Shown one piece after another: positions 10,040 through 63,553 of a stretch of DNA of 64,000 bases. How positions within the stretch are numbered: the first letter of the stretch is position 1; each line of letters opens with the position of its first letter. The stretch lies in contig NC_066581.1 in the NCBI RefSeq assembly GCF_024323335.1, forward strand, positions 180,165,330-180,229,329, read 5' to 3'. This DNA comes from Lathyrus oleraceus (taxonomy: Eukaryota; Streptophyta; Magnoliopsida; Fabales; Fabaceae). The notes beneath the pieces were generated by a model, which was not told the DNA's origin, ran no database searches, and saw only the letters and a list, made by a program, of their open reading frames with translations. The translations under genes and the position numbers were made by a program.

Positions 10040-10880
10040 GACTTTTCTCATCTCCCCAAGCAGGGTCAGGATGACTAATTCCCCAGAAGATTCAAGGTTT
10101 GTGGCTTCCCTAGCGGGGTCGGGATGGTTATCTCCCCAGCAGGTTTGGGATCGGCATTTCCTCAGCAGCCATGCCTGAAGGTTGCTATTTCACAGTGGAG
10201 GTATCTGTGGGTGGTGGTTTCCCCAAGCAGAGTCGGGATTATTGTATCCCCAGCAAGTCAAAAACAGTTGTTCCCCACAGAGTGCGTTGGTGGATCTCAC
10301 CCCAGCGAGGTCCCCAAGCGGCTCGGGTACAGAGGAGGCTATTCCCCAGCAAGGGTTGCCTTTTCCCAGCAGCAGTGCTATTCCCCAGCAGGGTGGAGGT
10401 CGGAGCGCTGGCAAGTTCCTCAGCAGAGTGTCTCGAGCTCCCTAGAAGAGTCCCTTGAGGGGGATACCTTTTATACATTCATCATGTAGATAAGCATAGC
10501 ATATTGCATAATAAATCGCGTAGCATTTCCCTGATTATGGAGCATTACGCTGAAAAAGTCATGCATCATTATCGCAAGCATGAGCTAGTCTCAGACCGTG
10601 GTTACCGTTTGAGAGGTGGTTTTTCCCGAAGGTGAAGGTGTTACTCCGAGGAGTTTAGCATCATGATTTTGAATCGAAGGTATTCCCCAGTAGTGCGATA
10701 TTGGAGGAAGAGTTTCTGTCGAGCAGAGATGGGAATGTTCATCAGAAAGTTTCGGGGTTCAACAAGAGCAAAAAAGTAAAACAAGAAAGAGATAATCCCC
10801 AGCTAAATGCAAAGTGTTCGTTGGCTAGGGTTGAATAGAGAATAGCCGGTTCATGGCTTGATTTCCCCAGCATGGGTCGT
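10040..10880 (+). repeat. Cluster of CCCCAGCAGAGTCG-like motifs (anti-PBS repeats), copy 1
   Basis: About 16 degenerate copies of a TTCCCCAGCAGRGTCGGGAT-like motif lie here by eye. Clear examples are at 10221-10236 (CCCCAAGCAGAGTCGG), 10108-10124 (CCCTAGCGGGGTCGGGA), 10133-10150 and about 10418-10432. The core is the reverse complement of the Ogre primer-binding site (TGGCGACTCTGCTGGGGAC, seen in copy 2 at 34045-34063). Spacing is irregular, about 25-50 bases, and the sequence between motifs is not conserved, so this is not a simple tandem array. Confidence 0.75.
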
Positions 10881-10966
10881 GGGCACGCGTGCCGACTCAT
10901 TTATCACTGTTTTGTTGTCTCTGCCGATGCTGACGGGCAAGATGAGTTCCCGGTGTTCAGACCGAG

Positions 10967-11480
10967 GTGGTATTCAGACTAGTTTCCGATTTCCAGATCG
11001 AAGAAGTTCTCGACAATCAGGATGAAGAACTTGAAGCGGCTCAAGCCAGTTCCGATTTCCAGATCGAAGAAGTTTCCGACTATCAGGTTGAAGTACTTAT
11101 GGCATCCAGGCCAATCTTCCGGTGTCCAGACCGAGGGGGGTATTCAGACCGAAGCGGCACTCAGACCAAGTTACCGATTTTCAGATCGAAGAAGCTTCCG
11201 AAGTTCAGATCGACGCAGCTTGTGGCATCCAGGCCAATCTTCCGGTGTCCAGACCGAGGCGGGTATTCAGACCGAAGCGGCACTCATGCCAATTTTCCGA
11301 TTCTCAGGTCGAAGAAGCTTCTGAAGTTCAGATCGACGCAGCTTGTGGCGTTCAGGCCAATCTTCCGGTGCCCAGACCAAGGCGGGTATTCAGACTGATG
11401 CGGCTCTCAGGCCAGTTTCTGATTTTCAGATTGAAGAAGCTTCCGAAGTTCAGATCGATGCAGCTTGCGGCAGTCAGACC
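10967..11480 (+). repeat. Tandem array, 123-bp unit (copy 1 3' UTR)
   Basis: Unit starts (CATCCAGGCC or variant) fall at 11103, 11226, 11349 and about 11471, giving a 123-bp period. Two shorter related units of about 67 bp precede them (from 10981 and 11048). Because 123 is divisible by three, long reading frames stay open in several frames; they are not taken as genes. From 11475 to about 11700 the array breaks into short CAGACCGAAGTGGTGTT-like repeats. Variable 3' UTR tandem repeats are known in pea Ogre and are a proposed source of satellites. Confidence 0.85.
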
Positions 11481-11876
11481 GAAGTGGTGTTCAGACCGAA
11501 TCGGTGGTTAGACCGAAGTGGTGTTCAGACCAAAGTGGTGTTCAGGCCAATTCCCCGGTATTCAGACCAATATCGATACTCTCATATTGTGATGTTCAGT
11601 ATTCAGACTGACGGGTGGTGTTCAGGCCATGGTTATTCCTGTGTTACCATTTATTTTGGTATCCAGACCAGTATTCCTGTTCGGTATTCAGGCCGATCTT
11701 TCTCCGTACCAGACGGATTTTTCTTTCAAGATTGTTTCTTTGACCGGTTCTGGCAGGTGTTGTTAATTATTTCCCATCAGAGTGCAAATTGTTCGTCTGT
11801 TCTTGGTATTCAATCACTCTTCACCCTGATCATCTGAAAGCCGAGGTTATTCATATCGACAAGTTCACAGTGGATT
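11481..11876 (+). other. 3' UTR tail of copy 1
   Basis: Degenerate short repeats of the CAGACCGAAGTGG type continue to about 11700. A further CCCATCAGAGTGCAAATTG motif (about 11773-11791) then stands roughly 100 bases before the PPT, matching CCCCGCAGAGTGCAAATTTC at the same place in copy 2 (about 46833). No gene is seen. Confidence 0.5.
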
Positions 11877-11889
11877 GAATAGGGGCAGC
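11877..11889 (+). other. Polypurine tract, copy 1
   Basis: GAATAGGGGCAGC lies directly before the LTR start TGTAACACC. The same purine block precedes the 3' LTR of copy 2. It would prime plus-strand DNA synthesis. Confidence 0.85.
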
Positions 11890-13136
11890 TGTAACACCTC
11901 AAAATTTGCCCTCCTCTCTTGGGACTAGCTTAGCATATTGCATTTCATTTTTTAGGACATTAGTCATTGCATCTTTGCATATCATGTGGCTACATTGAAC
12001 AAGTCATCCTCCTAAGTCTTGCTCAGAATATAAAGAGGTCAAAAGATATTCAAGCCTGAGGGTCTCATTGGATTGATCACTAATCATCTGAGGGTTTGTG
12101 TTTCAAATTAGGGTTTCTTGGTTCCTCAAGGAGATTGATCATTATCTTGGTTGAAATGGTACATCATCATCATCATGGTTTTATCATCACCAAGAGGTTC
12201 ATTATGCTTGATCAGATGCCTTGGGATTAGGGTTTTGACCTTTGGTCAACCCTAATCAGTTGAATTGTGCCAATCAGGGCTTGTCAAGGAGATGAGGTCT
12301 TCATTGAGATGGGGGATCATCATGTGGTTTCATTGAGCTTGTGGAGGCTAGGGTTTCATTTTGGAGCCATTTCATCGGGAGATTGAGGCTCAAGCTCAAC
12401 AATCAAGCTGAAATTCATCTATCAGCTGAAAAGTCAACCACAAGTCAACTTATGGATTTGGAGGTGGGAGAGGGTTATAAATACTTCATTCATGTCCAAA
12501 CAAGTCTCATTTGACATTTCAAAAACCAACATTGAAGGATTTGAGGTCAGATGAAAACTTTCCAAAAATAGTAAGTGACCTGTAATTTCAAACTGCCAAA
12601 AATGAAAAGGTTTTCTCCTCAGGATTACATGTCCAATAATGCTTCAAATGAAATTTTGTCCAACATGAAAGTTGAAGATCTTGCTCTCGCCTTTCCAAAA
12701 AGTCTAAGAACATCCATTTATCATTTGTGGTTGGCAAGATATGATCAAATCATTGCCAATGGATTTTGAACTTCAAGCTAGCATAACTTTCACACCAAAT
12801 GGCCAAATCATGTGGTTCTTTTTGGGACGTTTCACTCTTGATCTCTACTATCATAATCATGCATCACATTTCATCAATTCTCATCACAAAAATATTGCAT
12901 TTTTTACTTGAATTTTGGAGGGAAAGTATCAATTTGAAAAATGTGCATTATTTTCAGTTCCAATCAATTGCCTTTGCCTCCAAACAGATTTTTAAGCTTG
13001 TTACAAGTGAAACTCGGTACTGTTCATGCCATGCACATGCAATGAGGGTGATTTTGCCAATTTGTCCAAATACTTGGTTTTCACAAATTTTTCATTACCA
13101 ATTGATTAATCATGATTAAGTCTGGTTAATTAGAGG

Positions 13137-13144
13137 TATATAAG
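13137..13144 (+). promoter_or_regulatory. TATA box in LTR of copy 1
   Basis: TATATAAG lies about 1.25 kb into the LTR in an AT-rich setting, about 45 bases before an AACCCTAACC stretch. Its position corresponds to the TATA motif in the copy 2 LTR (30704), about 1.0 kb from that LTR start. Inferred LTR promoter. Confidence 0.55.
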
Positions 13145-15229
13145 TGGAATCATAATAGAAAAACCCTAACCACAATTCATTTTTTCAGATCTAAATTTTT
13201 TGCTCTCAACTTTTCTCAATTTTTTCTCTCATTTCCTTCAAGCAATTTGCATGGTTCTTGCTCTGTTCATCATCAAGCATCATTACTGAGCAACATTCAA
13301 GCAAGATTCAACTGAAATTCGTGCAAATTAAAGCTCCTCAAAGCAATAACATCAACAATGGTGAAGTCTTGAAACTGTGGAATCGTGCGTAGCTGAGCTT
13401 CGATCTTCCTTCTAAACATCTCCATAAGCATTGTAGAAGATTCTCCAAGCATCACAAGGCCTATTTCCAGCTGAATCCGCTTCTGTTGCTACAAGAGGTC
13501 ACAAACTAATTCTCATAATCTTGCTTTTTCTTATGTTAATGTTATAGATCCTTGATTGCTGAGTTGATTGAGCTTTGAATCGTGTTAAACCATGCCAAAA
13601 TGAGAGAGAACGGTTGATTTGAAGTTTGACGGATGATTTTTGTTTTGATCGATTCATGCTTGATGTAGTGTTTTTGGATGTGTTAGTTGTTGATTCTTGT
13701 TGCCTAATGTTAGATCTACATGATGCAATGCACGATTTGCGTTTCTGGAACCTTTCAATTTTTCTGGAAAAATTATGGATGAAGATCATGAAGATCTTCA
13801 TGTGTTCTTGATCACTGGAAATTTCCTGCGGATTTACCCGTGACCTTCATAGCGTTTGCCACGTCTTTTCCTGCGGATCCATATGCTTTTCCTGCAGATT
13901 CACGTTGCCCAGCATGCATGCATGCGCCTAGGGCTTGGCTGAAACGACCTCGTTTTGGTCTTGGCGCCTTGGACATTTGAATGCGTGGCGTGTTCGATCC
14001 TGGCCTCCAGCATTTTCATTTTAGCTTTTGCATTTTATTTCACTTATGCATTCACATGTTCATATGCTTCATTCATCATTTTTATTTTTTCCTCCTCATT
14101 AAAAAATCCATAACTCCAAAAATAATGATCCAATTCACATGAGAGTTTTTATGCAATGTTCCTTGTGATGTCTTCTATTTTATGTTGATTTTTCCAGATT
14201 TTGTGCTCGGTTGGATTTTTAAATTGCCTACGGTTTGTTCATGCTTATGCCTTCTTGCACCTTGCTTGCTATTTTGGTTGTGAAATGATGATGGTTAATC
14301 CAAGGAAGCTGAAAATTTACATGTGTAATTTAGACACTTTGATTGATCTTTTGGCTTTGATTTTGAAATTTTTGCATTGCTGGATGTTGAGATATGATGT
14401 GGTTAATATAGGTGTGACAATGTGTGTCACACCATTTCTTGTCCAACTTGCTGATTTTATTTACCATGCCATTCAATTGCTAAATGATCTGAATTTTTGC
14501 ATGATGCTACTTCTGGATGTTAGGTTTGGCCATGATTTTTCATAGAATTCTTGGATCCATTTCCTTTTTGTTTGAGATTTTCTTTGCTGGTTGGTCATAA
14601 TTGGACTTTTGTTGAGTGTTGAACTTTCATGATTTGTGAAATTCTTATGCCTTATCATATGAGCTTGAAATTTTGTACATTGATTCTTAACATGTTGAAG
14701 TGTGTCTTGGCTTTGGTTTGAATCATTTATCTTATGTCATTTCTGTTTTAGGATTGCCTTAAGTTGATGCACCATTTGTGGTCTTGTTTGAGCTTGTTTA
14801 TGCTTACCTTGACTTGTTGATTTTAATTGACATGCTTCTACTTATCCAAATGCCATGATTCTTGGTGTGATGATCATGTAATGAGTGCTGTTTTGCCATG
14901 ATTTTTCTTGGGAATTATTGAATTATTTTTGAGTTAGTTTGGATTGATTCATTCTGTTTGGTCCAATGAGCTTTGAACTTGCATGCTTTGCACTATTTGT
15001 TTTGTGAAATGAAATTGGTGTATGATATGAACATGAGACCACTTGGATGTTATTCTTGATTGATTGAACTTGATTATTACCAATTTTCATGTTCTGTTTT
15101 GAATTATTTCTCCCTCTTTGACCCTAGGCCTAGTCCTAGTGGTTAGTGCTTATGCTTGAGTTGTGTTTTCAGGACAAGAAGCATATGGCCTTGAGGAGTT
15201 TGATTCATTTCACTACGCCAAAAAGGTTT

Positions 15230-15590
15230 TTTAACAGCGCATCTTAGACAGTGCTTTTAAAAGAAAGCGCTGTCTAAGGTTAAAATAAAAATAAAACACG
15301 GAAAATGTTCTAAAAAAATAATGAAAGCGCTGTCTAAGGGGGGGTCTTAGACAGCGCTTTTAGAAAGCGCTGTCTAAGACCCCCCCTTAGACAGCGCTTT
15401 TAGAAAGCGCTTTTAAATATAGACCTTAGTCAGCGCTTTTGAGAAAGCGCGGTTTAAAGTCTTTCAATTAAAAAAAAAATTAAAACCAAAAGCGCTGTCT
15501 AAGGTGGGGGTTTAGAAAGCGCTTTTGGAAAGCGCTGTCTAAGGCATATCTTAGAAAGCGCTTTCCACAAAAGCGCTGTCTAAGGTCTAA
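15230..15590. repeat. Left subterminal repeats of the CACTA element
   Basis: At least eight copies of AGCGCTGTCTAAGG or its complement TTAGACAGCGCTTT occur in both orientations, several joined by runs of G or C as short inverted repeats. They mirror those at 18620-18895. Confidence 0.9.
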
Positions 15591-15599
15591 TTAAAATTA

Positions 15600-16006
15600 A
15601 ATTTCAGACTTCTATTTTCGTTCTCAGTTCTTTTTGTTTTCCCTCCTGCGATTAAACCCCTCCAGCGAACCCTAACAGCGAACGAGAATACATTGTAATC
15701 ATTCGGTTTCAATACCAGAAAGTGTTTGAAGAATCGGTTTCAGAACGTCATTTCTACTGCGGTATGTTCTTCATTTCTGCATTTTTAACTCATTCAATTC
15801 GAATAAACTGATTCTATTTCATTTCTTTCTTTTCTGTTCAAAGCTTGAATTAGGTTTCCAATCGTCCCCGATTTGGTTCTGCTTCTCGTTTCGTGATCGA
15901 TCGACGACTGTGGTTTAGGTTTAGGGTATAGATTCCACCATGTCAGATTCCGATTCTTCCTCTTATGGCGGCGAATACAAAAACCTCAAACAAATTAGTC
16001 GCGAGA
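15600..16006 (+). pseudogene. Captured 5' end of a KEULE/Sec1-family gene
   Basis: A 5' UTR-like exon (about 15600-15762) ends at a GTATGT donor. A second exon has the ATG at 15940 and encodes MSDSDSSSYGGEYKN followed by about 7 residues, up to a GTAAGT donor at 16007. This closely resembles the N-terminus of the plant Sec1/Munc18 protein KEULE, a SNARE-binding protein in cytokinesis and secretion; the match is from memory. Only this first coding exon was found and the rest of the gene is absent. It is best read as a fragment captured by the CACTA element, possibly with its promoter region. Confidence 0.75.
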
Positions 16007-17230
16007 GTAAGTTCTTTTTCCTTTTGTTGGTATGATTGTTGAACTTGTTCCGTTTATTTCTTCTCTTAATTTTTTTGTTGCTTCCGGTTGTAAGCGAATG
16101 CTATACAGTGTATGCTCATGGTTTGATTTTGAGTTCGGCATTATTAACTTCACTTTGCTCTTCACACATTGGTTCTGGTTTTACTGAACACTAGTATAAT
16201 TTGTGTTTTGGTGCTTGTAATTTTTATTTGGTTTCGGAGTTTTATTAGTTAAACTAGAAGATATGTGAAAATCTGAGTCATGCTAGTGTCTCAAAACGTG
16301 AGCCGTTCCGACAGCAGTGGCTCCGGCCTGGCTCTCTGTAATGCTAAACCACGGATTTGATTGCTAATTAAGCAGAAAATTTTAAGTTATGCCGATTAGA
16401 ATCTTCTAACATAGTCCAGGATCAGAGTTTGCAATATTTAGTGTCCTCCCTTTTCTAGTTCAGGATGATTTTTTCTTCTTCTCTGTTACACTAATGAATA
16501 TTCTCTTCGCCAATTCTGCAAGTAATATTTGGTTAGTTCTAGTTGTGGATACCATGTTCTGCCATATTGAATGGAGAAGTTATCTGAGGATATATTGCAA
16601 TAGACATGTTTCAGAAATAGACAATGTGTTAGAGTAATGTGTCTTGTTATAACACTTCTTTGATGATGTTAAATATAGGAACCATTTGCAGATGGTATGT
16701 TTAAGGAGTTTTCCATCTCTTTGAAACTCCAAAATTTTTGACACCTTATTGGCTGTATGTTCTGAATTCCTTTTGCTTGACTCCGTAACTTGCCCATATT
16801 CCTCTCTGTAATTAGAATTTGGACTAAAGACTTCTTTGTGATGCACACCTAGAAGCAAAGTTCTGGTTCCCAACAGTATTGCCCACTTTCTTTATTCCTG
16901 CTAGTCTACTTTGAAAGTCCTTGCTCCCCATGTAAATTTTTTCATTTAAACTTCACAACTAAATATGTTCAATTGAATCAACAACAACAACAACAACCAA
17001 GTCTTATCCCACTAAAGTGGGGTCGCCTACATGGATCAAATTACGCCATAATGTTCTATCAATGACCATGTTTCTATTTGATCAATGTCATAGAGATTCA
17101 ACAAAGCTTTACGCTAACTGTCGACTGCCTATCTCAACACTCTTCTTTTATCCGGACTTGAGACCGCTATGCATAACAAAAGCTAACATAGACAAGATTA
17201 GTATTAAACATGACAAGAAGACGGCCACAC
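16007..17230 (+). other. CACTA interior: intron-like sequence and an unrecognised minus-strand fragment
   Basis: The start looks like the intron after the KEULE-like exon. On the minus strand, about 16873-16580, an open stretch encodes GTRTLLLGVHHKEVFSPN and about 75 further residues with a protein-like composition; it may be another captured exon but the family was not recognised. At about 16975-17040 a CAACAACAACAACAACCAAG / TCTTATCCCACTAAAGTGGG segment resembles a short repeat common in many plant genomes. No complete gene is present. Confidence 0.4.
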
Positions 17231-17464
17231 AATGGATTAGAGAAACTCATGAAAAGAAAGAAACTTGATGCCGTGATAACACCTTTTTCATCCTTTAGTA
17301 GTATACTCGCTATTGGAGGTTATCCTGGAGTGATTGTTCCAGCAGGATATGAAAAGGGTATATCATTTGGAATTTACTTTGGAGGTTTGAAAGATTTAGA
17401 GCCAAAGTTGATTGAAATTGCTTATTCATTTGAGCAAGCAGCCCTTCCAAAATTAGACGTTTGA
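17231..17464 (+). pseudogene. Captured C-terminal fragment of an amidase gene
   Basis: The frame encodes KLMKRKKLDAVITPFSS, then LAIGGYPGVIVPAGY and FGIYFGGLKDLEPKLIEIAY, and stops with TGA at 17462-17464. These motifs match the C-terminus of plant amidase-signature proteins (GatA-like amidases), where the GGYPxxxVPAGY segment lines the fold. The catalytic Ser-Ser-Lys region is absent, so this piece cannot be an active enzyme. It is a second host-derived fragment inside the CACTA element. Confidence 0.8.
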
Positions 17465-17722
17465 AGTAGTAATGCTTTACGGCTAAAAATTAAAATAAAA
17501 GGTGGAACTTTGACAGAATACTGGAGTGAGTTTTGTATGACTAATAATGTGTTTTTTTATAAGAAAAATATGTAATTTAAATAAGATTTTTTTGTTGTTG
17601 ATAATTTAGGCTTTCTTACTGTTGATAAATGGTTTAAACTCAATATTATTTTATGAATATTGTAATTCATCTATTATAATTATTTTCCAAGTTACCATCT
17701 AATATTTGCCTAATCATTACAG

Positions 17723-18375
17723 TGGACATTGGTTGTTGCTCGCAATCAATCCTATCCGAGAAATTGTGTATTATCTTGACTCGTTAGGAAATGATTGGAC
17801 AACATACCCGGATATGAAGGTCCTAATTGACACGTAAGTGAGAATGTTCAAATTTTTTCTTAGTTTATGTGAATTGTTCTAATTGCTTCATTTTTATTTT
17901 ATTAGCGTCCTACAAGCTTTTCGGGCCCAACGAGATATCCAAACCTCAAGGAGGGGCGCCAACTCCATTACATGGATTAAAGTGGCGGTATATTTTTAAT
18001 TACCACATTTTTTATTATATTAGTGATGACACGTGATAAAACTTAGGATTTATAATCCATATTTTTTTTTCATATGTAGTGTCCTCAACAACGTAATCAA
18101 ATAAATTGCGGGTATTTCATGTTGAGGTTTATGCGGGATACTCTTGCTTTGGGCCGATTAAAGATTCCCACCGATGTATGTATTTCTAACTTATGAGTTA
18201 TTTTTATATTTACACATATCTCATATAATTAAATAGTTGGAATTAATTCAAAATATGTTATATTATTATGTAGTACTTTGATGAATTCAAGTGTGCATTT
18301 TATACAAAGGATCAAGTGGACGAAATCAAAGAGGAGTGGTGTCAATTCATGATAAAGCTCAATGTTTGTTCATAA
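17723..18375 (+). pseudogene. Ulp1-like (C48) cysteine protease fragment, four exons
   Basis: Four exons with GT-AG borders are inferred: 17723-17833, 17906-17987, 18080-18175 and 18274-18375 (TAA at 18373-18375). They give a continuous C-terminal Ulp1 peptidase domain: GHWLLLAINP with the catalytic His (17727-17729), VYYLDSL with the Asp, CPQQRNQINCGYFMLRFM with the Gln and nucleophile Cys, and a final helix. Ulp1/SENP enzymes process SUMO, and Ulp1-like domains are often carried by plant CACTA and Mutator elements. The N-terminal part of a full protein was not found, although an upstream exon such as the captured KEULE start could in principle be spliced to it. All catalytic residues are kept. 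Confidence 0.8.
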
Positions 18376-18619
18376 ATTTGTGTAATTAATGTGTACATTT
18401 GTAGTATATGTTATGACTTGTAAATGTGTACATAAATTTGTATATATTTTGATACATTTAAGGCAAAATTGGTTTGAATTGGTATATATATATATTTGTT
18501 AGCCAAAAATTGGTAGAAAAAAGGCCAAAATGGCATATATAAAATGTGATAATTGTCTGTCAAAATCTGGTTGAAAACAGGTAGAAATTCTGGTTTATAA
18601 ACCTGGAAAAAATGTGGTT
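18376..18619 (+). other. CACTA interior, no gene
   Basis: AT-rich sequence between the Ulp1 stop and the right subterminal repeats, containing loosely repeated GGCAAAATTGG / GCCAAAATGG phrases. It is likely 3' UTR of the Ulp1-like transcript. Confidence 0.4.
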
Positions 18620-18895
18620 TAAAACAAAAGCGCTGTCTAAGGGGGGGGCTTAGACAGCGCTTTTTGAAAAGCGCTGTCTAAGGTATACCTAAAAAAATTA
18701 AAATAGGAGGGTCTTAGAAAGCGCTTTTGGCCAAAGCGCTGTCTAAGGGGGGGGGGGGGGGGGGGGGGGGGGGGCTTAGACAGCGCTTTTAAGATTTAAA
18801 AAAGCGCTGTCTAAACCTTTAGCAGCGGAGGTTTAGACAGCGCTTTAAAGCGCTGTCTAAGGCTAAAAAAAGCGCTGTCTAAGGTCTTGTTTGTT
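18620..18895. repeat. Right subterminal repeats of the CACTA element
   Basis: Multiple TTAGACAGCGCTTT / AAGCGCTGTCTAAGG copies occur in both orientations, partner to the left cluster. The G runs between motif pairs include the 28-base G run at 18747-18774. Confidence 0.9.
18747..18774 (+). repeat. Poly-G run of 28 bases
   Basis: An uninterrupted G28 lies between CTGTCTAA and CTTAGACAGC in the right CACTA subterminal region. Sister motif pairs carry only about 5-9 G, so this one is expanded or is an assembly or base-calling problem. Confidence 0.9.
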
Positions 18896-19974
18896 GTAGT
18901 GTTTGCTCATTTGGATTGATATTTGGTTGATGTTGGCTAACATTGATTGGTTTTGTAGGTTGCTTTAGCTCCTTTGAGTTGAGCTTGTGCTTTGCTTGAT
19001 GCATTGCTTGTGTATAGTTAACTGTTGACTTGTAACTGTCTGTTTGACTGTTTGAGTTGTGTACTGATTGTGTTGGATTGTTTTCAGGTACCTTAGTTGC
19101 TATAGTTCCTTTGTGAACTTGCTTTTGCTTTGCTTGGTTGCTTAACCAATTTGAGGTAGAATTTCTCTTCTTCATGTAGTCTGGAAGACCTGACCTGTTA
19201 CTTGGCCAGACACCTGTCTGAAGTCCTCCTTAAGAGGCAATGCTTATGAATGTTTATCTTTGTGCCAAGCAGGAAAAGACCTTTGATAAGGAAATTGGTA
19301 GATAAAAGAGATGTGTAGTCCATCTCCTACTATTCAGTGTGTCATCCCTCTGCTCACATTACATGTTGATGCATTGTGGATACTAACCCAAGATCTGTTG
19401 AGTCAGTCATAAGTGTAGAAGGGTTCCCACTTTCTGAACCCACACTTTCATCTGTTTAAAAGCTCTCCCTGACCAGGGATAAGAGCTATGAGGCACACCC
19501 CTCATCTCCATTTCATCTGGCTTCACCCTAACTCTCAATGTTAGGGTTAAGAGCTAACATTACCCGATTCCAGTTGGCTTGTGTTTCACAGCCTAACCTT
19601 TGTGTGAGCCCACTTTGTTTGTATATAGTGCGTGCTATTTGATGTGATAGATTGCTTTGCCTGTGTTTAAGATAGCTTGCTGCCTGAGCAAGATAGATAG
19701 AAAACCTTAACATAGGGCCATGATGCATGACAACTTCTAGGCTCGAGTTATAGTCTCCCTAGCGGTTAGTGTCTCCCCTTTGTATCTGGTTAGGCTAGTC
19801 CTTCTCCCCTGTTCAGGGGAACTACGTTGCCCTGATCCTCATGCCAGATGAGGTACGTAGGCAGGAGGTCGTACGAGACCTCTCCGGGCACCCTTTTTCT
19901 TTTGTGTGTGTTTGCTTGACAGTTGCTAGGCTCGAGTGCCAGACTCCTTAGTAACTTGTTGTTTGTCAACCTTC

Positions 19975-20145
19975 TTGTGTGTGTTAGGAGATGGATGTAA
20001 GCCCAGCGATTGGCAGTACGTATCCTTTTGTTGTGTGCTTGGAGTCCGATATAAGTCCAGCAATTGGCGTTTCGTTTCCAATGTGGGTTTGTTTGGTTCT
20101 GAGTCCGATGTAAGTCCAGCGATTGGCATTCGGTTTCCATGTTTG
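19975..20145 (+). repeat. LTR-internal repeats (GAGTCCGATGTAAGTCCAGC type), copy 1
   Basis: Three imperfect units with a shared GTAAGTCCAGCGATTGGC core, about 60 bases apart. The same units occur four times in each LTR of copy 2 (33413-33650 and 50678-50915). Confidence 0.75.
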
Positions 20146-22340: not shown

Positions 22341-22352
22341 GACAATAATTAA

Positions 22353-23116: not shown

Positions 23117-23211
<95 letters not shown>

Positions 23212-36932: not shown

Positions 36933-39900
36933 ATGGATCAAGTTCAAGCTGAGTTGGCAGAGATGAGGGCTAACATGGCCCAGTTTATGACCATGATGCA
37001 AGGGGTCGTTGAAGGGCAAGAGGAGTTGCGTGCCTTAGCCCAGAGACAGGAAGCCGTGATTCCACCGGTCAACCGTGCTTCACCAGAGGGGGTCCCTGTT
37101 AATGAAGTTGTGTCTGCTACTATTTCCGTCAACAACTATGTTGTGGGTGATGAGTTGAGGGGTATCAGAATTAATGGACAACCTATTGCTGCTGAAACTG
37201 CTAATGTTAGAGCAACCCGTGCTCCGGTTCGCCATCCTGCTCCGTTGGTAGACAGACAGGAAGACATGTTTACTCTCCTCAGTGAGGATGATGAATTTGT
37301 GAGAACTGAAGAGAGGGATAGGAAGGTTGATGCTCTAGCTGAGAAGATCAGAGCCATGGAGTGTCAGAACTCTTTGGGTTTCGATGTAACCAATATGGGA
37401 TTGGTTGATGGGCTGAGAATTCCTTACAAATTCAAGGCGCCATCCTTTGACAAATATAATGGCACTTCTTGTCCTCGCACCCATGTGCAGGCTTACTACA
37501 GAAAGATCTCCGCATATACAGATGATGAGAAGATGTGGATGTACTTTTTCCAGGATAGCTTGTCTGGAGCTTCCTTGGACTGGTACATGGAGTTGAAGAG
37601 AGAGTCTGTTAGAAGCTGGAAAGACTTGGGTGAAGCCTTCTTGAGGCAGTATAAACACAACATGGATATGGCTCAGAGCAGAACCCAACTGCAAAGCTTG
37701 TTTCAGAAATCTGGTGAAAGTTTCAAGGAGTACGCCCAGAGGTGGCGTGAGCTAGCCGCAAGAGTGCAACCTCCTATGTTGGAGAGAGAGCTGACGGATA
37801 TGTTTATTGGGACCCTACAGGGGGTGTTTATGGACCGTATGGGAAGTTGCCCGTTCAGTAGCTTTTCTGATGTGGTTATATGCGGAGAGAGGACTGAGAG
37901 TCTCATTAAAGCGGGAAAGATTCAGGATTCTGGTTCCTCGTCTTCGAGTTCTAAAAAGCCATTTTCTGGAGCATCCCGAAGGAGGGAGGGTGAGACTAAT
38001 GATGTGCACAGTCGGAGGAATACAAATAGAGGACAGTATCGTCAGGTTGCCGCTGTGACCATCCCAACTCAACCTCAGCAACAACAACAGAGAGCTCCAC
38101 AACAACAACAACAACAACAACAACGCCAGTTTCAGCCTAGGCAGAGAATGCCGGGTCGACGTTTCGACCCGCTGCCAATGACATATGCTGAGTTGCTCCC
38201 TGAATTGCTCAGGTTGGGGTTTGTTGAACTGCGTACTATGGATCCTTTGACAAAGATACCTGCTGGGTATGATGCCAACGTCCGTTGTGACTTCCATTCC
38301 GGTGCACCGGGGCACCATATTGAGAACTGTCGGGCTTTTCATCATAAGGTCCAGGATTTGATTGATGCCAAAACAATCAACTTTGCTCCTGTTCCGAATG
38401 TTGTGAACAACCCTATGCCTCAACATGGTGGGCCCAGGGTGAATAATGTGGAAGATGAGGAGGCTCTGGATTTGGTGGTCAGTATTGATGAGGTTCAGAC
38501 TTCGTTACTGGTGGTAGAAGAGCGTCTGCTGAAAGGGGGAGTGTTCCCGGGCTGTGAAGAGAGTTGCTTAGACTATGATGATTCAGAGAATGGTTGTGAA
38601 AAGCTGAGGAGAGGTATCCAGGGTCTGATTGATGAAGGTTACCTGCAGTTTAGTCGGGCTGTGAAAGATCGTGGGGTGGTATCAACTGTCACCATTTATT
38701 TCAAACCGTCCGAGGGTCCTGGACGTGCTCCGAGAATTGTTAGTGCACCCGTGACTATCGGTACCCCTGTAACTATATCTGCTCCAGTAACTGTTGGTGC
38801 TCCTACCATTATTGTTGCTTTTGATAGAAGCCCTGTTGAGAACAGTAGAGCAGTTCCTTGGAGGTATGACAATGCTTACCGTAACAACAGAAGGCCAGAA
38901 AGTCAGCCAAGGCCAGTGAATTAAGCTCCCGTGACAATTGGTGTGCCAAATAGAACTCCAGTAACTGTGGGTCCAGTTGTGGACAATGTGGGAGGACCTG
39001 GAGGGTTTACTAGAAGCGGTCGTCTGTTTGCACCGCAGACTTTGAGAGATAACAACGCTGAGGCTCTTGCCAAAGCAAAGGGAAAGCAAGCTGTGGTTGA
39101 GGAAGAACCTGTACAGAAGGAGGCGCCTGAGGGTTCATTTGAGAAGGATGTGGAGGAGTTCATGAAGATCATTAAGAAAAGTGATTATAAGATCGTGGAC
39201 CAGCTGAACCAAACTCCGTCCAAAATCTCTATCCTTTCTCTGTTGTTGTGTTCTGAGGCACACCGTAACGCCTTGCTGAAAATGTTGAATCTGGCTTACG
39301 TGCCTCAAGAGATTTCTGTCAACCAGTTGGAGGGTGTTATTGCGAATGTGAGCACACGGCATGGTTTGGGGTTCACAGACCTGAATTTGACACCTGAAGG
39401 TCGTAATCACAACAAAGCCCTGCATATTACCATGGAGTGCAAAGGCGCAATGTTGTCACATGTGTTGGTCGATACTGGCTCGTCTTTGAATGTGTTGCCT
39501 AAGAAGATTTTGAGTAAGATTGATGTTGAAGGGGTTGTCCTCACTCCGAGTGATCTCATCGTCCGTGCTTTCGATGGATCCAAGCGGTCTGTTTTTGGCG
39601 AAGTCACATTGCCCGTGAAGATTGGCCTGGAGGTGTTTGACATTGTCTTCTATGTGATGGATATTCAACCAGCATATAGTTGTTTATTGGGGCGTCCCTG
39701 GATACATGGGGCTGGAGCCGTGTCGTCAACTCTCCATCAGAAGCTAAAGTATGTATGGAATGGTCAGGTTGTGACTGTGTGCGGCGAGGAGGACATTCTT
39801 GTGAGTCATCTATCCTCTTTCAAGTATGTGGAGATGGATGGCGAGATTCATGAAACTCTGTGCCAGGCTTTTGAGACCATTGACATTGAGAGGGTGGCTT

Positions 39901-40250
39901 TTGTGGAGCAGAAGAAACCAGGTGTTTCAATTGCGTCCTACAAGCAAGCTGTGGAGGTTGTTAAATCTGGTAATGCAGAAGGCTGGGGCAAGATGGTTGA
40001 CATGCCCGTCAAAGAGGACAAATTCGGTATTGGCTACCAACCTCTTCAGTCAGAGCAGGGTGTGCAGAAAGGGCCGAGTACCTTCACCAGCGCTGGATTG
40101 ATGAATCATGGTGACGTCTTTGCAGCCGGTAGTGAAGACGGGGACAGTGATTATGAGGTGGACACCTGGGTGCGCCCGTGTGCTCCCGGGGAGATGGTGA
40201 ATAATTGGACAGCCGAAGAAATAGTCCAAGTTATTCTTCAGACAGAGTAA
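36933..40250 (+). pseudogene. gag-pro: Ogre gag-protease (copy 2), single premature stop
   Basis: One reading frame from ATG 36933 to TAA 40248-40250, broken only by TAA at 38922-38924. Gag has a short N-terminal heptad-like region, the retrotransposon-gag core (KYNGTSCPRTHVQAYY, WMYFFQDSLSGASLDWY), a Ser-rich segment and a poly-Gln stretch (about 38075-38130). Then comes a CX2HX5HX4C knuckle (38286-38330). The protease carries LVDTGSSLNVLP (near 39468-39500) and LLGRPWIH. Gag forms the particle; the protease cuts the polyprotein. The terminal TAA overlaps the intron donor at 40247, as in copy 1. Confidence 0.92.
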
Positions 40251-40491
40251 TTTTCTTTTGTTTTTCATTTTGCACAAACCCTACGCTCTGCCCGGGGCGT
40301 AGTGGTCATTGTAGGGCCTCATCATGTTTTCAATGATTATCATTAATAAAGGACGTTTTGCAAACAAGTTTGTGCTCACTGTCTTTCTGTTTTTGTTTTT
40401 GTTTTTCAAAACAATAAAAATGGCAATTTTTTTTTTGTTTTTTTGTGACTTTCTTGGACTCTTTTTCTAAAATAAAGCATTAAACATGCAG
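40247..40491 (+). other. Ogre pro-RT intron, copy 2 (245 bp)
   Basis: GTAATT donor at 40247 and CATGCAG acceptor ending at 40491. Removing it keeps the frame open into RT. The equivalent intron of copy 1 is 278 bp. Donor and acceptor hexamers are conserved between the copies while most of the interior has diverged. Confidence 0.85.
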
Positions 40492-43400
40492 AATCGATCT
40501 CGCGGACTCCACTAAAAACAGTTCTGTTATGGCTCAGTACGATTTCGATAATCCCATTTACCAAGCTGAAGAGGAGAGTGAGGAAGATTGTGAACTCCCT
40601 AAAGAATTGGTTAGATTATTGAAGCAGGAGGAAAGGGTCATCCAACCTCATCAGGAAGAGTTGGAGATTATTAACCTTGGTACTGAGGACGCCAGGAGAG
40701 AGATCAAGATCGGGGCTGCTTTGAAGGAATCTGTCAAGAGAGGGCTAACTGAGATGCTGAGAGAATATGTGGAGATATTTGCATGGTCGTATCAAGATAT
40801 GCCGGGGTTGGATACAGATATTGTGGTGCACAGGCTACCTCTCAGAGAAGATTGTCCTTCGGTAAAGCAGAAGCTGCGCAGAACTAGTCCTGATATGGCT
40901 GTCAAGATCAAAGAGGAGGTTCAGAAGCAGTTGGATGCGGGTTTTCTGGCAGTTACCAATTATCCCCCGTGGGTGGCCAACATCGTACCCGTGCCTAAGA
41001 AGGATGGTAAAGTCAGGATGTGTGTCGATTACCGGGATTTAAATAGAGCCAGTCCGAAAGATGACTTCCCATTACCTCACATTGATGTATTGGTTGATAA
41101 CACTGCTCAATCCTCGGTTTTCTCTTTCATGGATGGATTCTCTGGCTATAATCAGATCAAGATGGCGCCAGAAGACATGGAAAAGACGACATTCATTACA
41201 CCTTGGGGCACGTTCTGCTATAAGGTGATGCCATTTGGGCTGAAGAATGCCGGTGCTACCTATCAGAGGGCTATGACGACTCTCTTTCATGACATGATGC
41301 ACAGAGAGATTGAAGTGTACGTGGATGATATGATTGCGAAGTCTCAGACAGAAGAGGAGCACCTGGTAAACCTGCAGAAGTTGTTTGAAAGGCTGAGAAA
41401 GTTCAAACTGAGGCTGAATCCAAACAAGTGTACGTTTGGGGTGAGATCCGGAAAGCTGTTGGGTTTCATTGTCAGTGAGAAAGGGATTAAGGTTGATCCA
41501 GCGAAAGTAAAAGCTATTCAATAAATGCCTGAACCGAGAACTGAAAAGCAGGTTCGTGGGTTTTTAGGGAGATTAAACTACATTGCACGGTTCGTATCTC
41601 ACCTAACTGCCAAGTGTGAACCGATTTTCAAATTGCTAAGAAAAGATCAAGCAATCAGGTGGAACAATGACTATCAAAAAGCTTTTGATAAGATAAAAGA
41701 GTATTTGCAGAAACCTCCAATCCTTATACCTCCAGTTCTTGGGAGGCCTCTGATAATGTACCTTTCAGTGACTGGGAACTCGATGGGGTGTGTATTGGGA
41801 CATCATGACGAGTCTGGTCGAAAAGAGCACGCTATATACTACCTTAGCAAAAAGTTTACTGACTGTGAAATAAGATATTCACAGCTCGAGAAAACTTGTT
41901 GTGCTTTGGCCTGGGCTGCTCGCCGACTGAGACAGTATATGTTGAACCATACTACTTTGTTGATTTGTAAGATGGATCCAGTAAAGTACATCTTTGAAAA
42001 GCCGGCTCTCACCAGACGTGTGGCTCGTTGGCAGATGATCTTGACTAAGTATGATATCCAGTATACGTCGCAGAAGGCCATCAAGGGTAGTATTCTGTCA
42101 GACTACCTTGCCGAGCAACCGATTGATGATTATCAGTCGATGATGTTTGAATTCCCCGATGAAGACATCATGTATCTAAAGATGAAAGATTGTGAAGAGC
42201 CTCTTGCTGAGGAAGGACCGGATCCTGATGACAAGTGGACATTGATGTTTGATGGGGCAGTTAATGTGAATGGCAACAGTGTTGGGGCAGTACTCATTAA
42301 CCCCAAAGGTGCACACTTACCTTTTTCTGCCAGATTGACTTTTGAAGTAACCAACAACGAGGCTGAGTACGAGGCTTGTATCATGGGGATTGAAGAAGCC
42401 ATCGATCTAAGGATCAAAACTCTGAACATCTACGGAGATTCCGCTCTAGTGATTAACCAAGTCAATGGAGATTGGAATACTCACCAGCCGCATTTGATTC
42501 CTTATCGAGATTACACCAGAAGGATCTTGACTTTCTTCAAGACAGTAAAGTTGTATCATGTACCCCGAGATGAAAATCAGATGGCTGATGCCTTGGCCAC
42601 TTTATCTTCTATGATTAAAGTCCATTGGTGGAATCATGTCCCACATGTTGCCGTGAATCAACTCGAGAGGCCTGCATATGTGTTTGCAGCCGAGTCTGTA
42701 GTTGATGAGAAGCCGTGGTACTATGATATCAAGAATTTCCTCAAGAGTCAGGAGTATCCTGAAGGAGCGTCAAAGAATGACAAGAAAACCCTGAGAAGGC
42801 TAGCTGGAAGCTTTTATTTGAATCAGGATGATGTGTTGTACAAGAGGAACTTCGACATGGTTCTGCTCAGATGCGTGGATAGACACGAAGCAGACATGTT
42901 GATGCAGGAAGTGCACGAGGGGTCTTTCGGTACCCATGCTGGTGGTCATGCAATGGCCAAGAAATTGTTGAGAGCCGGCTATTACTGGATAACCCTGGAA
43001 TCCGATTGTTTCAAATACGCTCGGAAGTGCCATAAATGTCAGATCTATGCACATAAAGTGCATGTACCACCGAATCCTCTGAATGTTATGAATTCTCCTT
43101 GGCCATTCGCGATGTGGGGCATCGATATGATTGGGAAGATTGAACCTACTGCTTCTAATGGGAATCGCTTCATCCTGGTTGCGATTGATTACTTCACCAA
43201 ATGGGTAGAAGCAGCTTCCTATGCTAATGTTACCAATCCTGGTTGAGAGGATCATTACTGACAATGGTTCGAATCTCAATAACAAGATGATGAAAGAGCT
43301 TTGCAAGGATTTCAAGATTGAACATCACAATTCTTCTCCTTACAGACCAAAGATGAATGGTGCTGTAGAGGCGGCAAACAAGAACATTAAGAAGATTGTG

Positions 43401-43919
43401 CAGAAGATGGTCGTGACGTAAAAGGATTGGCATGAGATGCTGCCTTTCGCTTTGCATGGGTACCGTACCTCAGTACGTACGTCGACCGGGGCAACCCCTT
43501 ACTCCCTTGTGTATGGTATGGAAGCAGTCCTACCTGTTGAAGTGGAGATTCCTTCTCTGAGAGTCTTGCTGGATGTTAAGCTAGACGAAGCTGAGTGGAT
43601 TCGAACAAGGTTTAATGAGTTGAGCCTTATCGAAGAGAGGCAGTTAGCAGCTGTGTGCCATGGGCAACTGTATCAGAGAAGGATGAAGAAGGCCTTTGAT
43701 CAGAAAGTGCGTCCTCGAAGCTATCAGACAGGTGATTTGGTTTTGAAGAGGATCCTTCCTCCCGGTACAGATAACAGGGGCAAATGGACTCCGAATTATG
43801 AAGGTCCATATGTTGTTAAGAAGGTCTTCTCCGGTGGAGCCTTGATGCTTACAACTATGGATGGTGAATATTTTCCGTCCCTTGTGAACTCAGATGTAGT
43901 CAAAAAATACTTCGCATAA
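40492..43919 (+). pseudogene. pol: Ogre pol (copy 2): RT, dual RNase H, integrase with three lesions
   Basis: Homologous along its length to the intact pol of copy 1. RT has FMDGFSGYNQIKM and YVDD; the second RNase H has FDGAVNVNG and AEYEACI; integrase has an HHCC finger and the first Asp (GIDMIG, near 43124). Lesions are TAA at 41522-41524 between RT and RNase H, a net 47-bp deletion at about 43232-43242, which shifts the frame just before the second integrase Asp, and TAA at 43419-43421. The last 160 codons (43437-43919) are open to the normal end. It cannot make full-length enzyme. Confidence 0.93.
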
Positions 43920-44716: not shown

Positions 44717-45740
44717 GACAAGTTTATAACTGGTCTCCCCAGCAAGTCCGAGATCAGTGTTGCCTCGGCAGTCAGGCCTGGAGTTGATTGCAATCCCCAG
44801 CGGGTTGAGGATGTTTGTATTCCCCAGCAGGTCTGCAGGTGACCTTTTCCCCAGCAGGTCTGAAGACTGTTAGTCCCCACTGAGTCTGAAGGTTGCTATT
44901 CCCTCAGCAGAGATGTCTGTGGGTAGCTTGTTCCTTAACAATCGGGTCTGAAGTATTGTAATCCCCAACAAGGTTATGAGCGCCTTTCCCCAGCAGTGGT
45001 GTGACTGTTTTCCCCAGCAAGTCTGAAGTGGGTAATCTCCCCAGCGGAGGTTTGTATTGATGGTTTTCCCCAACGAAGTCCCCAAGCGGATCAGGTTCGG
45101 TGAAAATTATCCCTAGTAGAGTTAATCCTGCCCGTGGGTTGGCAGTTATCCCCAGCGGAGGTAAGCATTGGTTGTTTCCCCTAGCGGAGTCCCCAAGTGG
45201 CTTGGAATCAGCAAAAGTTGTCCCCGGTGGGACTTATCCTTTCTCCAGCAGCAATGCTATTCCCCAGCACGTTTGAGAGGTTGGTGTGTTCCCTAGATAG
45301 AGACTCCCCAGTTGACTTGGTTTCTCTGCCGTCCCCAAAGTATTAGATCAACAAAGCACCCCCAGCAGTGCGTCTCCCCACAGAGTTGAAAGATTAGATC
45401 AGAAGTATGTGCTCAGCAGAGTGACCAGTTCTCCCCAGCGGGAGTTTTCTTCATTTTGCATCTTGCATGTAGTAATCATTGCATCCTCAAATAGCGTAGC
45501 ATTTCCATTCAATATGGAGCATTACGCCATGGAAATTCAAACATATGCATACATATGTTAAACCGGTTGGCAGTTATTCCCAGCAGAGGTGGATCATTTT
45601 TCAACATCTGAACGTCACCTTTGCAGCAGTTCCTCCTGACAGTGTTCAAGATTGATAATCCCCCAGAGAGGTTTATTTCCTCACCCGTCAGTGAAAGGAA
45701 AGCTTGACTCCCCAGAGTAGTCCCCGGCAAGTGTCTGGCC
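44717..45740 (+). repeat. Cluster of CCCCAGCAGAGTCG-like motifs (anti-PBS repeats), copy 2
   Basis: About 25 degenerate copies by eye. Good examples are 44821-44834, 44847-44860, 45068-45095 (a CCCCAACGAAGT copy followed directly by CCCCAAGCGGATC), 45175-45205 (CCCCTAGCGGAGTCCCC), 45151-45165 and 45360-45395. Outliers continue at 46389-46406 (CCCCAGTAGAGTCGTCGG) and about 46833-46850. The core is complementary to the primer site at 34045-34063. Some copies read AGCGGAG, closer to my recollection of plant tRNA-Arg 3' ends than to the element's own primer site. Confidence 0.78.
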
Positions 45741-46012
45741 TTGTCTTGACGTATGTAGGTGTCATCCTTGCGATACCAGTGGGTGTCGTGATTGATCCCC
45801 GTGTGGGTCTTGTTATTTGGTGTCTGTAGACATCATATTTTGATGTCCGTAACACCAGCCTCTCTTCTCCCATTCATCCGTTGATGTCTGGTTGAGTCCT
45901 TCCTATTCGTCCGTTGGCTTCTAGTCGTGGTTTCTTTCTCCCATTCATCCGTTGATGTCTGGTAGAGTTTTTTCCCATTCGTCCGTTGACGTCTGGTCGT
46001 GTATCTTTTTTC
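45741..46012 (+). repeat. Short degenerate repeats before the 84-bp array
   Basis: CCCATTCATCCGTTGATGTCTGG-like units recur at about 45868, 45903, 45940 and 45974 with GTC(C/T)GG endings. They share CCRTTGAYGTCTGGT with the 84-bp unit and look like its shorter precursors. Confidence 0.65.
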
Positions 46013-46380
46013 CAGTCATCGGTAGGTGTCTGGTCGTTCCTTTTTTGGTGACGGTAAACACCATCTTTCGGTGTCGGTAAACATCGAGTTTCATCCCAGT
46101 CATCGGTAGGTGTCTGGTCGTTCCTTTTTTGGTGACGGTAAACACCATCTTTCGGTGTCGGTAAACATCGAGTTTCATCCCAGTCATCGGTAGGTGTCTG
46201 GTCGTTCCTTTTTTGGTGATGGTAAACACCATCTTTCGGTGTCGGTAAACATCGAGTTTCATCCCAGTCATCGGTAAATGTCTGGTCATTCCTTTTTTGG
46301 TGACGCTAAACACCATCTTTCGGTGTCGGTAAACATAAAGTTCCTTCCCAGTCATCGGTAAATGTCTGGTCATGTATCTT
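46013..46380 (+). repeat. Tandem array, 84-bp unit x about 4.4 (copy 2 3' UTR)
   Basis: Units start with CAGTCATCGGTA at 46013, 46097, 46181, 46265 and 46349, an exact 84-bp period. Each holds GGTAAACACCATCTTTCGG and GTCGGTAAACAT. 84 bp equals 28 codons, so a long minus-strand frame stays open; it is not taken as a gene. Confidence 0.95.
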
Positions 46381-46433
46381 TTCAAAATCCCCAGTAGAGT
46401 CGTCGGTAAACGTCTTGTCTGGTTCCAGTTAAA

Positions 46434-46819
46434 TATCAAGTCGACTATTCAAGCCGCCATCGGTAAATGGCCTCGCTTTCCTTGATATCAGTGTATATCA
46501 AGTCGACTGTTCAAGCCGCCATCGGTAAATGGCCTCGCTTTCCTTGATATCAATGTATATCAAGTCGACTGTTCAAGCCGCCATCGGTAAATGGCCTCGC
46601 TTTCCTTGATATTAGTGTATATCAAGTCGACTATTCAAGCCTCCATCGGTAAATGGTCTCGCTTTCCTTGATATCAGTGTATATCAAGTCGACTATTCAA
46701 GCCGCCATCGGTAAATAGCCTTGCTTTCCTTGATATCAGTGTATATCAAGTCGACTATTCAAGCCGCCATCGGTAAATGGCCCCGCTTTCCTTGATATCA
46801 GTGTATATCAAGTCGACTG
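46434..46819 (+). repeat. Tandem array, 62-bp unit x about 6.2 (copy 2 3' UTR)
   Basis: TATCAAGTCGAC recurs at 46434, 46496, 46558, 46620, 46682, 46744 and 46806, an exact 62-bp period. Units hold a GCCAT-CGGTAA-ATGGC stem-loop and a TTGATATCAGTGTATATCAA near-palindrome across the unit border. The ATCGGTAAATG core is shared with the neighbouring 84-bp array. Confidence 0.95.
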
Positions 46820-46934
46820 TTTCTTTGGTTATTCCCCGCAGAGTGCAAATTTCTACGGTTCTTTGGTATTCAATCCCTGTGTACCTCGAAAGTCTGACAG
46901 CCGTTGCATTCATCCGCTCGGGTACCCAGTTGAT

Positions 46935-63551: not shown

Positions 63552-63553
63552 AT

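What the first reader, a model, noticed from the sequence alone, without database searches (positions are those of the whole stretch)
10040..46850. Ogre 3' UTRs contain dozens of motifs complementary to the element's own primer-binding site
Copy 2 has the primer site TGGCGACTCTGCTGGGGAC (34045-34063). Its reverse complement is GTCCCCAGCAGAGTCGCCA, the expected tRNA-Arg 3' end. The 3' UTRs of copy 2 (44717-45740, plus 46389-46406 and about 46833) and of copy 1 (10040-10880, plus about 11773) hold roughly 25 and 16 degenerate copies of this sense-strand motif. Examples are CCCCAAGCAGAGTCGG at 10221-10236 and CCCCAGTAGAGTCGTCGG at 46389-46406. Several read AGCGGAG, nearer my recollection of tRNA-Arg than the element's own site. 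The RNA thus carries one PBS at the 5' end and many tRNA-3'-end mimics at the 3' end. Possible roles are long-range pairing that circularises the RNA or masks the PBS, or priming decoys. The motif could also be an accident of repeat growth from one captured primer sequence.
Basis: partly seen in the sequence, partly recalled or inferred. Interest (0 to 1): 0.87.

Follow-up and report, generated by a model that had tools for sequence, protein, structure and literature searches.

The report
Ogre 3' repeats mirror primer site
Giant plant retrotransposons of the Ogre type carry, just after their genes, arrays of short repeats that look like the tail of the host tRNA they use to start copying themselves, and so could pair with their own primer site; what the repeats do is not yet shown.

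Summary
Copy 2's PBS is at 34045-34062. Both 3' UTRs hold sense repeats, often 25-32 nt apart, with core TCCCCAGC(A/G): the reverse complement of the PBS and the same sequence as a plant tRNA-Arg tail. PBS windows rank first of 20,410 element windows for complementarity to both arrays (tied once) and first of 5,029 by duplex energy. From the host genome I took the first 10 listed PBS copies, 20 kb each. Eight of 10 stretches hold a same-strand array; in six, gene order suits one element with the PBS. In 10 elements with an Ogre pol end, 114 core sites lie within 3 kb, against 2 on the opposite strand, including a family whose arrays align with no other. Six elements with other PBS types had no array. 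The CCA end is not kept, so priming decoys are unlikely. Best reading: a reversible 5'-3' RNA clamp on the PBS, loosely like Ty1 CYC5:CYC3. The mechanism is inferred, and a tRNA-capture relic remains possible. Covariation with an unrelated PBS was not tested. A U5 match I noticed is not general.

The parts
34045..34062 (+). Primer-binding site of Ogre copy 2 (18 nt, tRNA-Arg type), 2 nt after the 5' LTR
   Evidence: exact match; context
44717..45740 (+). Copy 2 array of PBS-complementary repeats (core TCCCCAGC), 3' UTR
10040..10880 (+). Copy 1 array of PBS-complementary repeats, 3' UTR
46389..46406 (+). Outlying copy 2 site CCCCAGTAGAGTCGTCGG
46832..46846 (+). Last unit of copy 2, about 0.1 kb before the PPT; aligns with 11771-11785
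11771..11785 (+). Last unit of copy 1
29708..34042 (+). 5' LTR of copy 2 (TG..CA), target duplication GCATC at 29703-29707 and 51308-51312
46949..51307 (+). 3' LTR of copy 2
34817..43919 (+). ORF pieces of copy 2: ORF1 (DUF7745), gag, RT, RNase H, second RNase H-like domain (RVT_3), integrase zinc domain; the last piece (43437-43919) has no Pfam match
5473..8973 (+). pol ORF of copy 1 (RT, RNase H, RVT_3, integrase); the array starts about 1.1 kb after it
11890..20552 (+). 3' LTR of copy 1, with insertion
51316..51334 (+). PBS of a third, interrupted element (TGGCGACTCTGTTGGGGAC); its 3' UTR outside the window (L015:1738-2456) has the same kind of motif, more often TCCCCAA
10518..10550 (+). 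3' UTR hairpin ending GGAGCATTACGC, copy 1 (shared with copy 2, not part of the claimed mechanism)
45494..45527 (+). Same hairpin, copy 2; GCATTACGC is also the complement of the LTR end at 34030-34038

Best explanation
Ogre elements keep, in the 3' UTR starting 0.66-1.1 kb after pol, an array of degenerate repeats (8-19 close core sites per element examined). Their core TCCCCAGC(A/G)G(A/G)GT is the reverse complement of the 3' two-thirds of the element's own PBS. Shown: the arrays, their strand, place, core, specificity and recurrence in several LTR families of one genome. Inferred: in the genomic RNA these sites pair one at a time, weakly and interchangeably, with the PBS. That would bring the 5' and 3' ends together and cover the PBS until the primer tRNA, which pairs more strongly and could nucleate at the uncovered 5' TGGC, displaces the clamp. 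The effect would be RNA cyclisation for initiation and first-strand transfer, and perhaps shielding of the PBS from tRNA-Arg 3' fragments. The sequence may first have come from copying of the packaged tRNA tail.
For: PBS windows rank 1 of 20,410 (tied once) and 1 of 5,029 by duplex energy for both window arrays. Of 19,148 8-mers, those with at least 3 reverse complements in both 3' UTRs are three PBS words and a further copy of one of them at 38260. Sampled stretches: six of 10 have at most 1 of 1000 composition-matched permutations reaching their count of sites with 13 or more of 18 matches, and two more have 3 and 6. In 10 elements with an Ogre pol end: 114 same-strand core sites against 2 opposite and 7 for the reversed word, with the unselected extension matching the PBS complement in all 10 (p <= 0.025). 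Family A arrays have no blastn match to any other group, nor X (L028) or L026 to copies 1/2 (28 of 45 pairs without a hit), while A and X pol is about 72% identical to copy 1. 0 of 6 elements with other PBS types have an array. Array sites pair at -17 to -32 kcal/mol, the tRNA tail at -39. Core sites are locally more open than GC-matched windows (p = 0.0002 and 0.009). Transitions that keep G-U pairing outweigh those that break it (ts:tv 110:58 against 96:94, p = 0.005).
Against: PBS complement and tRNA tail are the same sequence, so most tests cannot separate pairing with the PBS from mimicry of the tRNA. In five aligned blocks of copies 1 and 2 the core is not clearly more conserved than the rest (73 of 89 against 164 of 218). 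Pairing rarely extends to PBS base 19 (G at -1 in 4 of 106 sites). A rank test with all 18-mers of the AT-rich 20-kb stretches was weak (PBS rank 29-3012 of 4,996 at 13 or more matches), and at 12 or more matches the strand contrast of the Arg tail is small (93:62). Cores are not more open than all windows (p = 0.30 and 0.47), and the PBS itself is not predicted open. L034 has no array, L024 none for its own element, and in L026 and L036 the array seems to belong to another Ogre than the PBS at the start. Arrays of groups B, C and L026/L028 are linked by partial homology. No Ogre with an unrelated PBS was examined.
Confidence: 0.45

Rival explanations
1. Relic: reverse transcriptase once copied the tail of the packaged primer tRNA into the 3' UTR, stopping at the methylated A58 (recalled; it would fit the edge of the match at T59), and the piece then spread by repeat growth without any function.
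For: The match starts at the first base after A58; position -1 follows neither tRNA nor PBS. Ogre 3' UTR repeats are hypervariable and were proposed to arise by abnormal strand transfers (PMC7004042, passages). Core not clearly more conserved than the rest in aligned blocks.
Against: Family A keeps the core with strict strand bias although its arrays align with no other group. Within runs of consecutive units of copies 1 and 2 the core is alike and the spacers are not (one poor unit was placed by hand). No full 18-mer copy among 247 sites (best 16 of 18), so no sign of fresh capture.
Confidence: 0.27
2. tRNA bridge as in Ty3: array cores equal the 3' strand of the tRNA T-stem and capture the T-stem 5' strand set free when the tRNA tail anneals to the PBS, tying the 3' UTR to the primed 5' end.
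For: Conservation is concentrated on the T-arm part of the tail; in Ty3, tRNA annealed to both RNA ends is proposed to cyclise it (PMC4974528, passages).
Against: About 5 bp by my reckoning from a recalled tRNA T-stem; bases T0, C1 and C7, outside that stem, are also kept (the core was the selection word there).
Confidence: 0.12
3. The core is a binding site for Gag/nucleocapsid or a host protein that recognises tRNA-Arg-like tails, for packaging or localisation.
For: Multiple spaced sites, more open than GC-matched windows.
Against: Does not by itself explain identity with the complement of the PBS; the wobble-tolerant substitution pattern suggests base pairing, though weakly.
Confidence: 0.11
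4. Chance similarity, or a general habit of LTR elements.
For: Some window is always first in a rank test; a secondary array also has a window with 12 hits. Two copia controls have 2 own-PBS sites at 13 or more matches (22 and 23 of 1000 permutations reach this).
Against: Same result in unselected stretches; no array in six elements with other PBS types; three other tRNA tails show 1-5 sites at 14 or more matches on either strand against 22 for Arg (two of the 22 are reverse-lying PBSs).
Confidence: 0.03

Closest known systems
Hypervariable 3' UTR minisatellites of Ogre/Tat elements (pea, Lathyrus, soybean Gmr9/GmOgre)
   Same: Tandem arrays between pol and 3' LTR; soybean repeat A is 26 bp, a common spacing here (PMC3305785, two of three parts of the text read; PMC7004042, passages)
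   Different: The soybean paper calls their function unknown; in what I read no link to the PBS is made. The soybean repeat sequences are in a supplement I could not open, so they were not compared
Ty1 CYC5:CYC3 cyclisation
   Same: Direct complementarity between the 5' and 3' ends of genomic RNA, required for efficient initiation (PMC4974528, passages)
   Different: One site pair, downstream of the PBS, in Ty1; here many degenerate sites that target the PBS itself
[quoted passage not shown]
   Same: 3' UTR takes part in primer interaction and proposed cyclisation (PMC4974528 and PMC11381356, passages)
   Different: In Ty3 the 3' UTR segments belong to the tRNA-binding PBS; here they are the same sense as the tRNA
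3'-tRNA fragments aimed at the PBS
   Same: A plant small RNA with this sequence is listed (cti-miR5072, PMC3844856, passage), and 3'-tRFs target PBSs (PMC7472051, passages)
   Different: Host small RNAs in trans; here the sequence lies in the element's own RNA

Membership tests
Ogre lineage (Ty3/gypsy, Tat) | Extra ORF before gag | tested here: met
   DUF7745 ORF1 at 34817 and 232; ORF1 in GmOgre from the figure legend of PMC3305785
Ogre lineage (Ty3/gypsy, Tat) | Second, archaeal-type RNase H | tested here: met
   RVT_3 after RT-RNase H in both copies; the Tat criterion is from PMC6317226, passages
Ogre lineage (Ty3/gypsy, Tat) | tRNA-Arg PBS (recalled for Ogre; PMC6317226 passages list tRNA-Arg among non-chromoviruses) | tested here: met
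   with iPBS 2395 and miR5072 as tail evidence; no tRNA gene of the host was read
Ogre lineage (Ty3/gypsy, Tat) | Intron between protease and RT (recalled) | not tested
   no transcript data
Ty1-type CYC pairing | 5'-3' complementary sequences in the genomic RNA | tested here: met
   by sequence and predicted energy only
Ty1-type CYC pairing | Compensatory mutants restore function | not testable with these tools
   no bench data; one natural one-base variant is suggestive only
Ty3 bipartite PBS | 3' UTR complementary to primer tRNA arms | tested here: inconclusive
   array is same-sense as the tRNA tail; T-stem pairing possible but short, tRNA body only recalled
Priming decoy | CCA-end match so that the tRNA 3' end pairs | tested here: not met
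   2 of 30 window sites keep CCA; positions 15-17 near background over 114 sites

The most novel reading that the evidence does not exclude
The long-unexplained minisatellites between pol and the 3' LTR of Ogre elements are multivalent PBS clamps: many interchangeable copies of the primer-tRNA tail in cis, held under selection to cyclise the giant genomic RNA and to cover the PBS against premature priming and tRNA-fragment silencing. The repeats would then be a replication organ rather than junk, and would change with the PBS.
Probability: 0.4. Interest if true: 0.86.

Novelty: new variant of a known kind. Interest (0 to 1): 0.72.

Why it matters
Ogre elements make up a large share of some plant genomes (45% in Lathyrus sativus, PMC7004042, passages), and their 3' UTR repeats seed many satellite DNAs there; how those repeats arise and what they do is open in the papers I saw. 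A primer-site mirror ties the repeats to reverse transcription, gives a direct test (does the core follow the PBS?), and suggests how very long genomic RNAs might bring their ends together.

Tried and rejected
U5 complement: GCATTACGC in both window 3' UTRs is the exact complement of the LTR end beside the PBS (4 of the 15 9-mers complementary to both 3' UTRs lie at 34030-34062). It forms a local hairpin, is not matched by copy 1's LTR end, and is missing in 6 of 10 elements, so I do not claim it as part of the mechanism.

Coding repeat: spacings vary (24, 25, 26, 27, 29 and more), so no frame is kept. Priming decoy: rejected. First EM motif search drifted; replaced. Global alignment of the arrays failed beyond some blocks; local blocks used, of which five went into the conservation count and the hairpin block and one conflicting block were left out. 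Rank test on whole 20-kb stretches was swamped by AT-rich words. For 40-nt windows the best PBS-containing window also ranks 1 of 2,512 for both arrays, but others rank 3 to 183. Relatives in viral contigs: one hit by pattern, in a contig with dense ORFs and no array, taken as chance, none by protein. Prokaryote contigs gave three RT-encoding loci without a usable 3' UTR. Left out of the controls: one further tRNA-Asp-like site (L031) with about 200 nt downstream. Whether the tRNA-Asp-like sites used lie at LTR ends was not checked. Literature: six searches over open PMC papers showed, in listings, no report of this complementarity; Macas 2009 and Laten 2009 were seen only as references and not read.
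Full report
What is there. The window holds two Ogre-type LTR retrotransposons on the + strand. Copy 1 enters from the left (pol ORF 5473-8973, 3' LTR from 11890). Copy 2 has both LTRs (5' LTR 29708-34042, PBS 34045-34062, ORF1 with DUF7745, gag, RT, RNase H, a second RNase H-like domain, integrase zinc domain, 3' LTR 46949-51307, target duplication GCATC). RT pieces of the two are 91% identical over 167 residues; pol DNA is 72.7% identical. The window lies in a 3.8-Gb genome with 66,923 copies of the PBS 19-mer at up to one mismatch, against none for the reversed word.

The observation. Each 3' UTR has an array of degenerate sense repeats, 21 and 26 sites by an iterated matrix; 19 of 45 spacings are 25-32 nt. 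The most frequent 7-mers are TCCCCAG, then TTCCCCA and CCCCAGC in copy 1, and TCCCCAG and CCCCAGC in copy 2. The core TCCCCAGC is the complement of PBS bases 11-18. With 29 sites chosen on the core alone, the following ten positions still match the PBS complement (121 of 290 against 74 expected from shuffled extensions, p = 0.00035). By counting, PBS windows rank 1 of 20,410 element windows for both arrays, tied with one at 40427 for copy 1. By duplex energy the PBS 18-mer ranks 1 of 5,029 windows, taken every 4 nt, for both. Of 19,148 8-mers, the ones with at least three reverse complements in both 3' UTRs are three PBS words and one copy of such a word at 38260. Controls are in the observation check.

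Which primer. The tail of a plant tRNA-Arg appears as iPBS primer 2395, TCCCCAGCGGAGTCGCCA (PMC9245474, one passage), and as a safflower small RNA, CGTTCCCCAGCAGAGTCGCCA, listed as miR5072 (PMC3844856, passages). That both come from tRNA-Arg is from recall; the papers' passages do not say it. The second ends in the complement of copy 2's PBS. Its T where a tRNA has methylated A58 would fit a misread base; this is my inference. No tRNA gene of the host was read.

Beyond the window. Of the 100 listed PBS places I took the first 10, without choice, with 20 kb downstream of each. Against 1000 permutations of the PBS complement, six of 10 have at most one permutation reaching their number of sites with 13 or more matches (L020, L026, L028, L030, L032, L036), two have 6 and 3 (L018, L022; 67 and 49 for density per kb), and two are negative (L024, L034). 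Eight of the places have LTR ends in view, of at least four kinds. tblastn shows Ogre pol at about 72% identity in L018, L022 and L028 and 82% in L036, while ORF1 is 39-42% identical in L018, L022, L024 and L028 (and in a reverse-lying copy in L020; one further L024 piece 27%) and 81-86% in L036.

Whose array. In L018, L020, L022, L028, L030 and L032 the order PBS, gag (with or without ORF1), pol pieces, array suits one element, though L028 holds nested insertions and in L030 pol is only 37-49% identical. In L036 the array follows the Ogre whose PBS lies at 6,417 of the stretch, not the one at its start. In L026 it follows a pol remnant far from the starting PBS and is 86% identical over 520 nt to that of L028. 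In L024 the starting element is interrupted by a reverse-lying Ogre, which has its own array. L034 has only distant pol and no array.

Position and strand. In 10 elements with an Ogre pol end (seven of the sampled stretches, the nested one in L024, copies 1 and 2; pol end at 69% identity or more in the sampled ones), core sites with at most one mismatch number 8-19 per element within 3 kb (1.6 kb for L028), 114 in all. There are 2 on the opposite strand and 7 for the reversed word, and the first site is 657-1106 nt after pol. The extension matches the PBS complement in each of the 10 (p from below 0.001 to 0.025). With TCCCCAAC also allowed as core the count is 145 against 12. These are not 10 independent cases: L018 and L022 are 95% identical, L026 and L028 share sequence, and groups B and C are linked by partial homology. 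But family A arrays (L018, L022) find no blastn match in any other group, and L026 and L028 find none in copies 1 and 2; 28 of 45 pairs have none.

Specificity. Three elements with tRNA-Asp-like PBS and three copia elements with initiator-Met PBS, found in the DNA already held, have neither own-PBS arrays nor Arg arrays (0 of 6). Two of the copia elements have 2 own-PBS sites at 13 or more matches (p about 0.02), not clustered. These six are other lineages, so this shows specificity, not covariation. Three other tRNA tails give 1-5 sites at 14 or more matches on either strand of the 10 stretches; the Arg tail gives 22 on the PBS strand (two of them reverse-lying PBSs) and 5 opposite. At 12 or more matches the contrast is small (Arg 93:62; others 60:69, 73:62, 25:23).

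A natural PBS variant. The window's third element has PBS TGGCGACTCTGTTGGGGAC (51316). It is interrupted by copy 2, by a solo LTR and by a copia element. Its 3' UTR in L015 has eight sites, none on the opposite strand, with A at the matching position in 5, G in 2 and T in 1, against 41 A, 102 G and 2 T elsewhere (A:G, p = 0.028). This goes the way pairing predicts, but it is one element, and the neighbouring tandem copy has yet another PBS.

Why pairing. (a) Core conserved, CCA end not, which fits contact with the 3' part of the PBS and speaks against priming. (b) Array sites bind the PBS at -17 to -32 kcal/mol and the tRNA tail at -39, so the primer could displace them. (c) Cores are more open than GC-matched windows (p = 0.0002 and 0.009) though not than all windows (0.30 and 0.47); the PBS region itself is not predicted open. 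(d) In positions 0-12, transitions that keep G-U pairing are 110:58 over transversions, those that break it 96:94 (p = 0.005; 272:248 against 224:284, p = 0.009, with looser sites). Sites are related, so these p values are optimistic. (e) Within consecutive units of copies 1 and 2 the core is alike (pairwise identity 0.58-1.0) and most other positions are not (units are aligned on the core).

Against. Aligned blocks of copies 1 and 2 show the core 82% identical (73 of 89) and the rest 75% (164 of 218), not a clear difference. G at -1, which would lengthen pairing, is rare (0 of 29 in the window; 4 of 106 in the ten elements less the nested one). The whole-stretch rank test was poor. PBS complement and tRNA tail cannot be told apart by sequence. 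No Ogre with an unrelated PBS was seen.

Known relatives. Ogre and Tat 3' UTR tandem repeats are well known, with function and origin open (PMC3305785, two of three parts; PMC7004042, passages; PMC11963269, discussion and half of one results section). Ty1 cyclises by CYC5:CYC3, and Ty3 has a PBS split between both ends (PMC4974528, passages; PMC11381356, passages). The present feature resembles the first in logic but is multivalent and aims at the PBS itself. Six literature searches showed no report of it in their listings.

Verdict. Observation confirmed and extended to several Ogre families of one genome; function inferred, with a tRNA-tail relic as the main rival.

Noticed in passing
window 24946-29656: Solo LTR of another family (TGTAAGACCCC.., target duplication CTTAG) inside a third element's LTR; copy 2 sits about 50 bases further on, at GCATC.
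   Followed up: partly
window 54362-64000 and L015:1-627: Copia element on the minus strand (initiator-Met-type PBS, LTRs 99% identical over 457 nt) inserted in the third element.
   Followed up: partly
L002 (Streptomyces clavifer contig BMWJ01000029.1): A 4.7-kb contig in a bacterial assembly encodes an Ogre-like RT, 62% identical; probably plant contamination.
   Followed up: no
window 10518-10550, 45494-45527; L020, L036: 3' UTR hairpin ending GGAGCATTACGC; its GCATTACG word is in 4 of 10 elements, with a diverged form near L015:1617; role unknown.
   Followed up: partly
window 11050-11545 and 45865-46818: Second tandem arrays (123/17 bp in copy 1; 34/71/84/62 bp in copy 2) have different units and show no PBS link.
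   Followed up: partly
PMC3844856: Plant 'miR5072' looks like a tRNA-Arg 3' fragment (CCA end) rather than a miRNA.
   Followed up: no
window 10484-10530, 45457-45500 against LTR starts 11890, 46949: Parts of the 3' UTR (TTGCATAGCA-like words) resemble the start of the LTR by eye.
   Followed up: no
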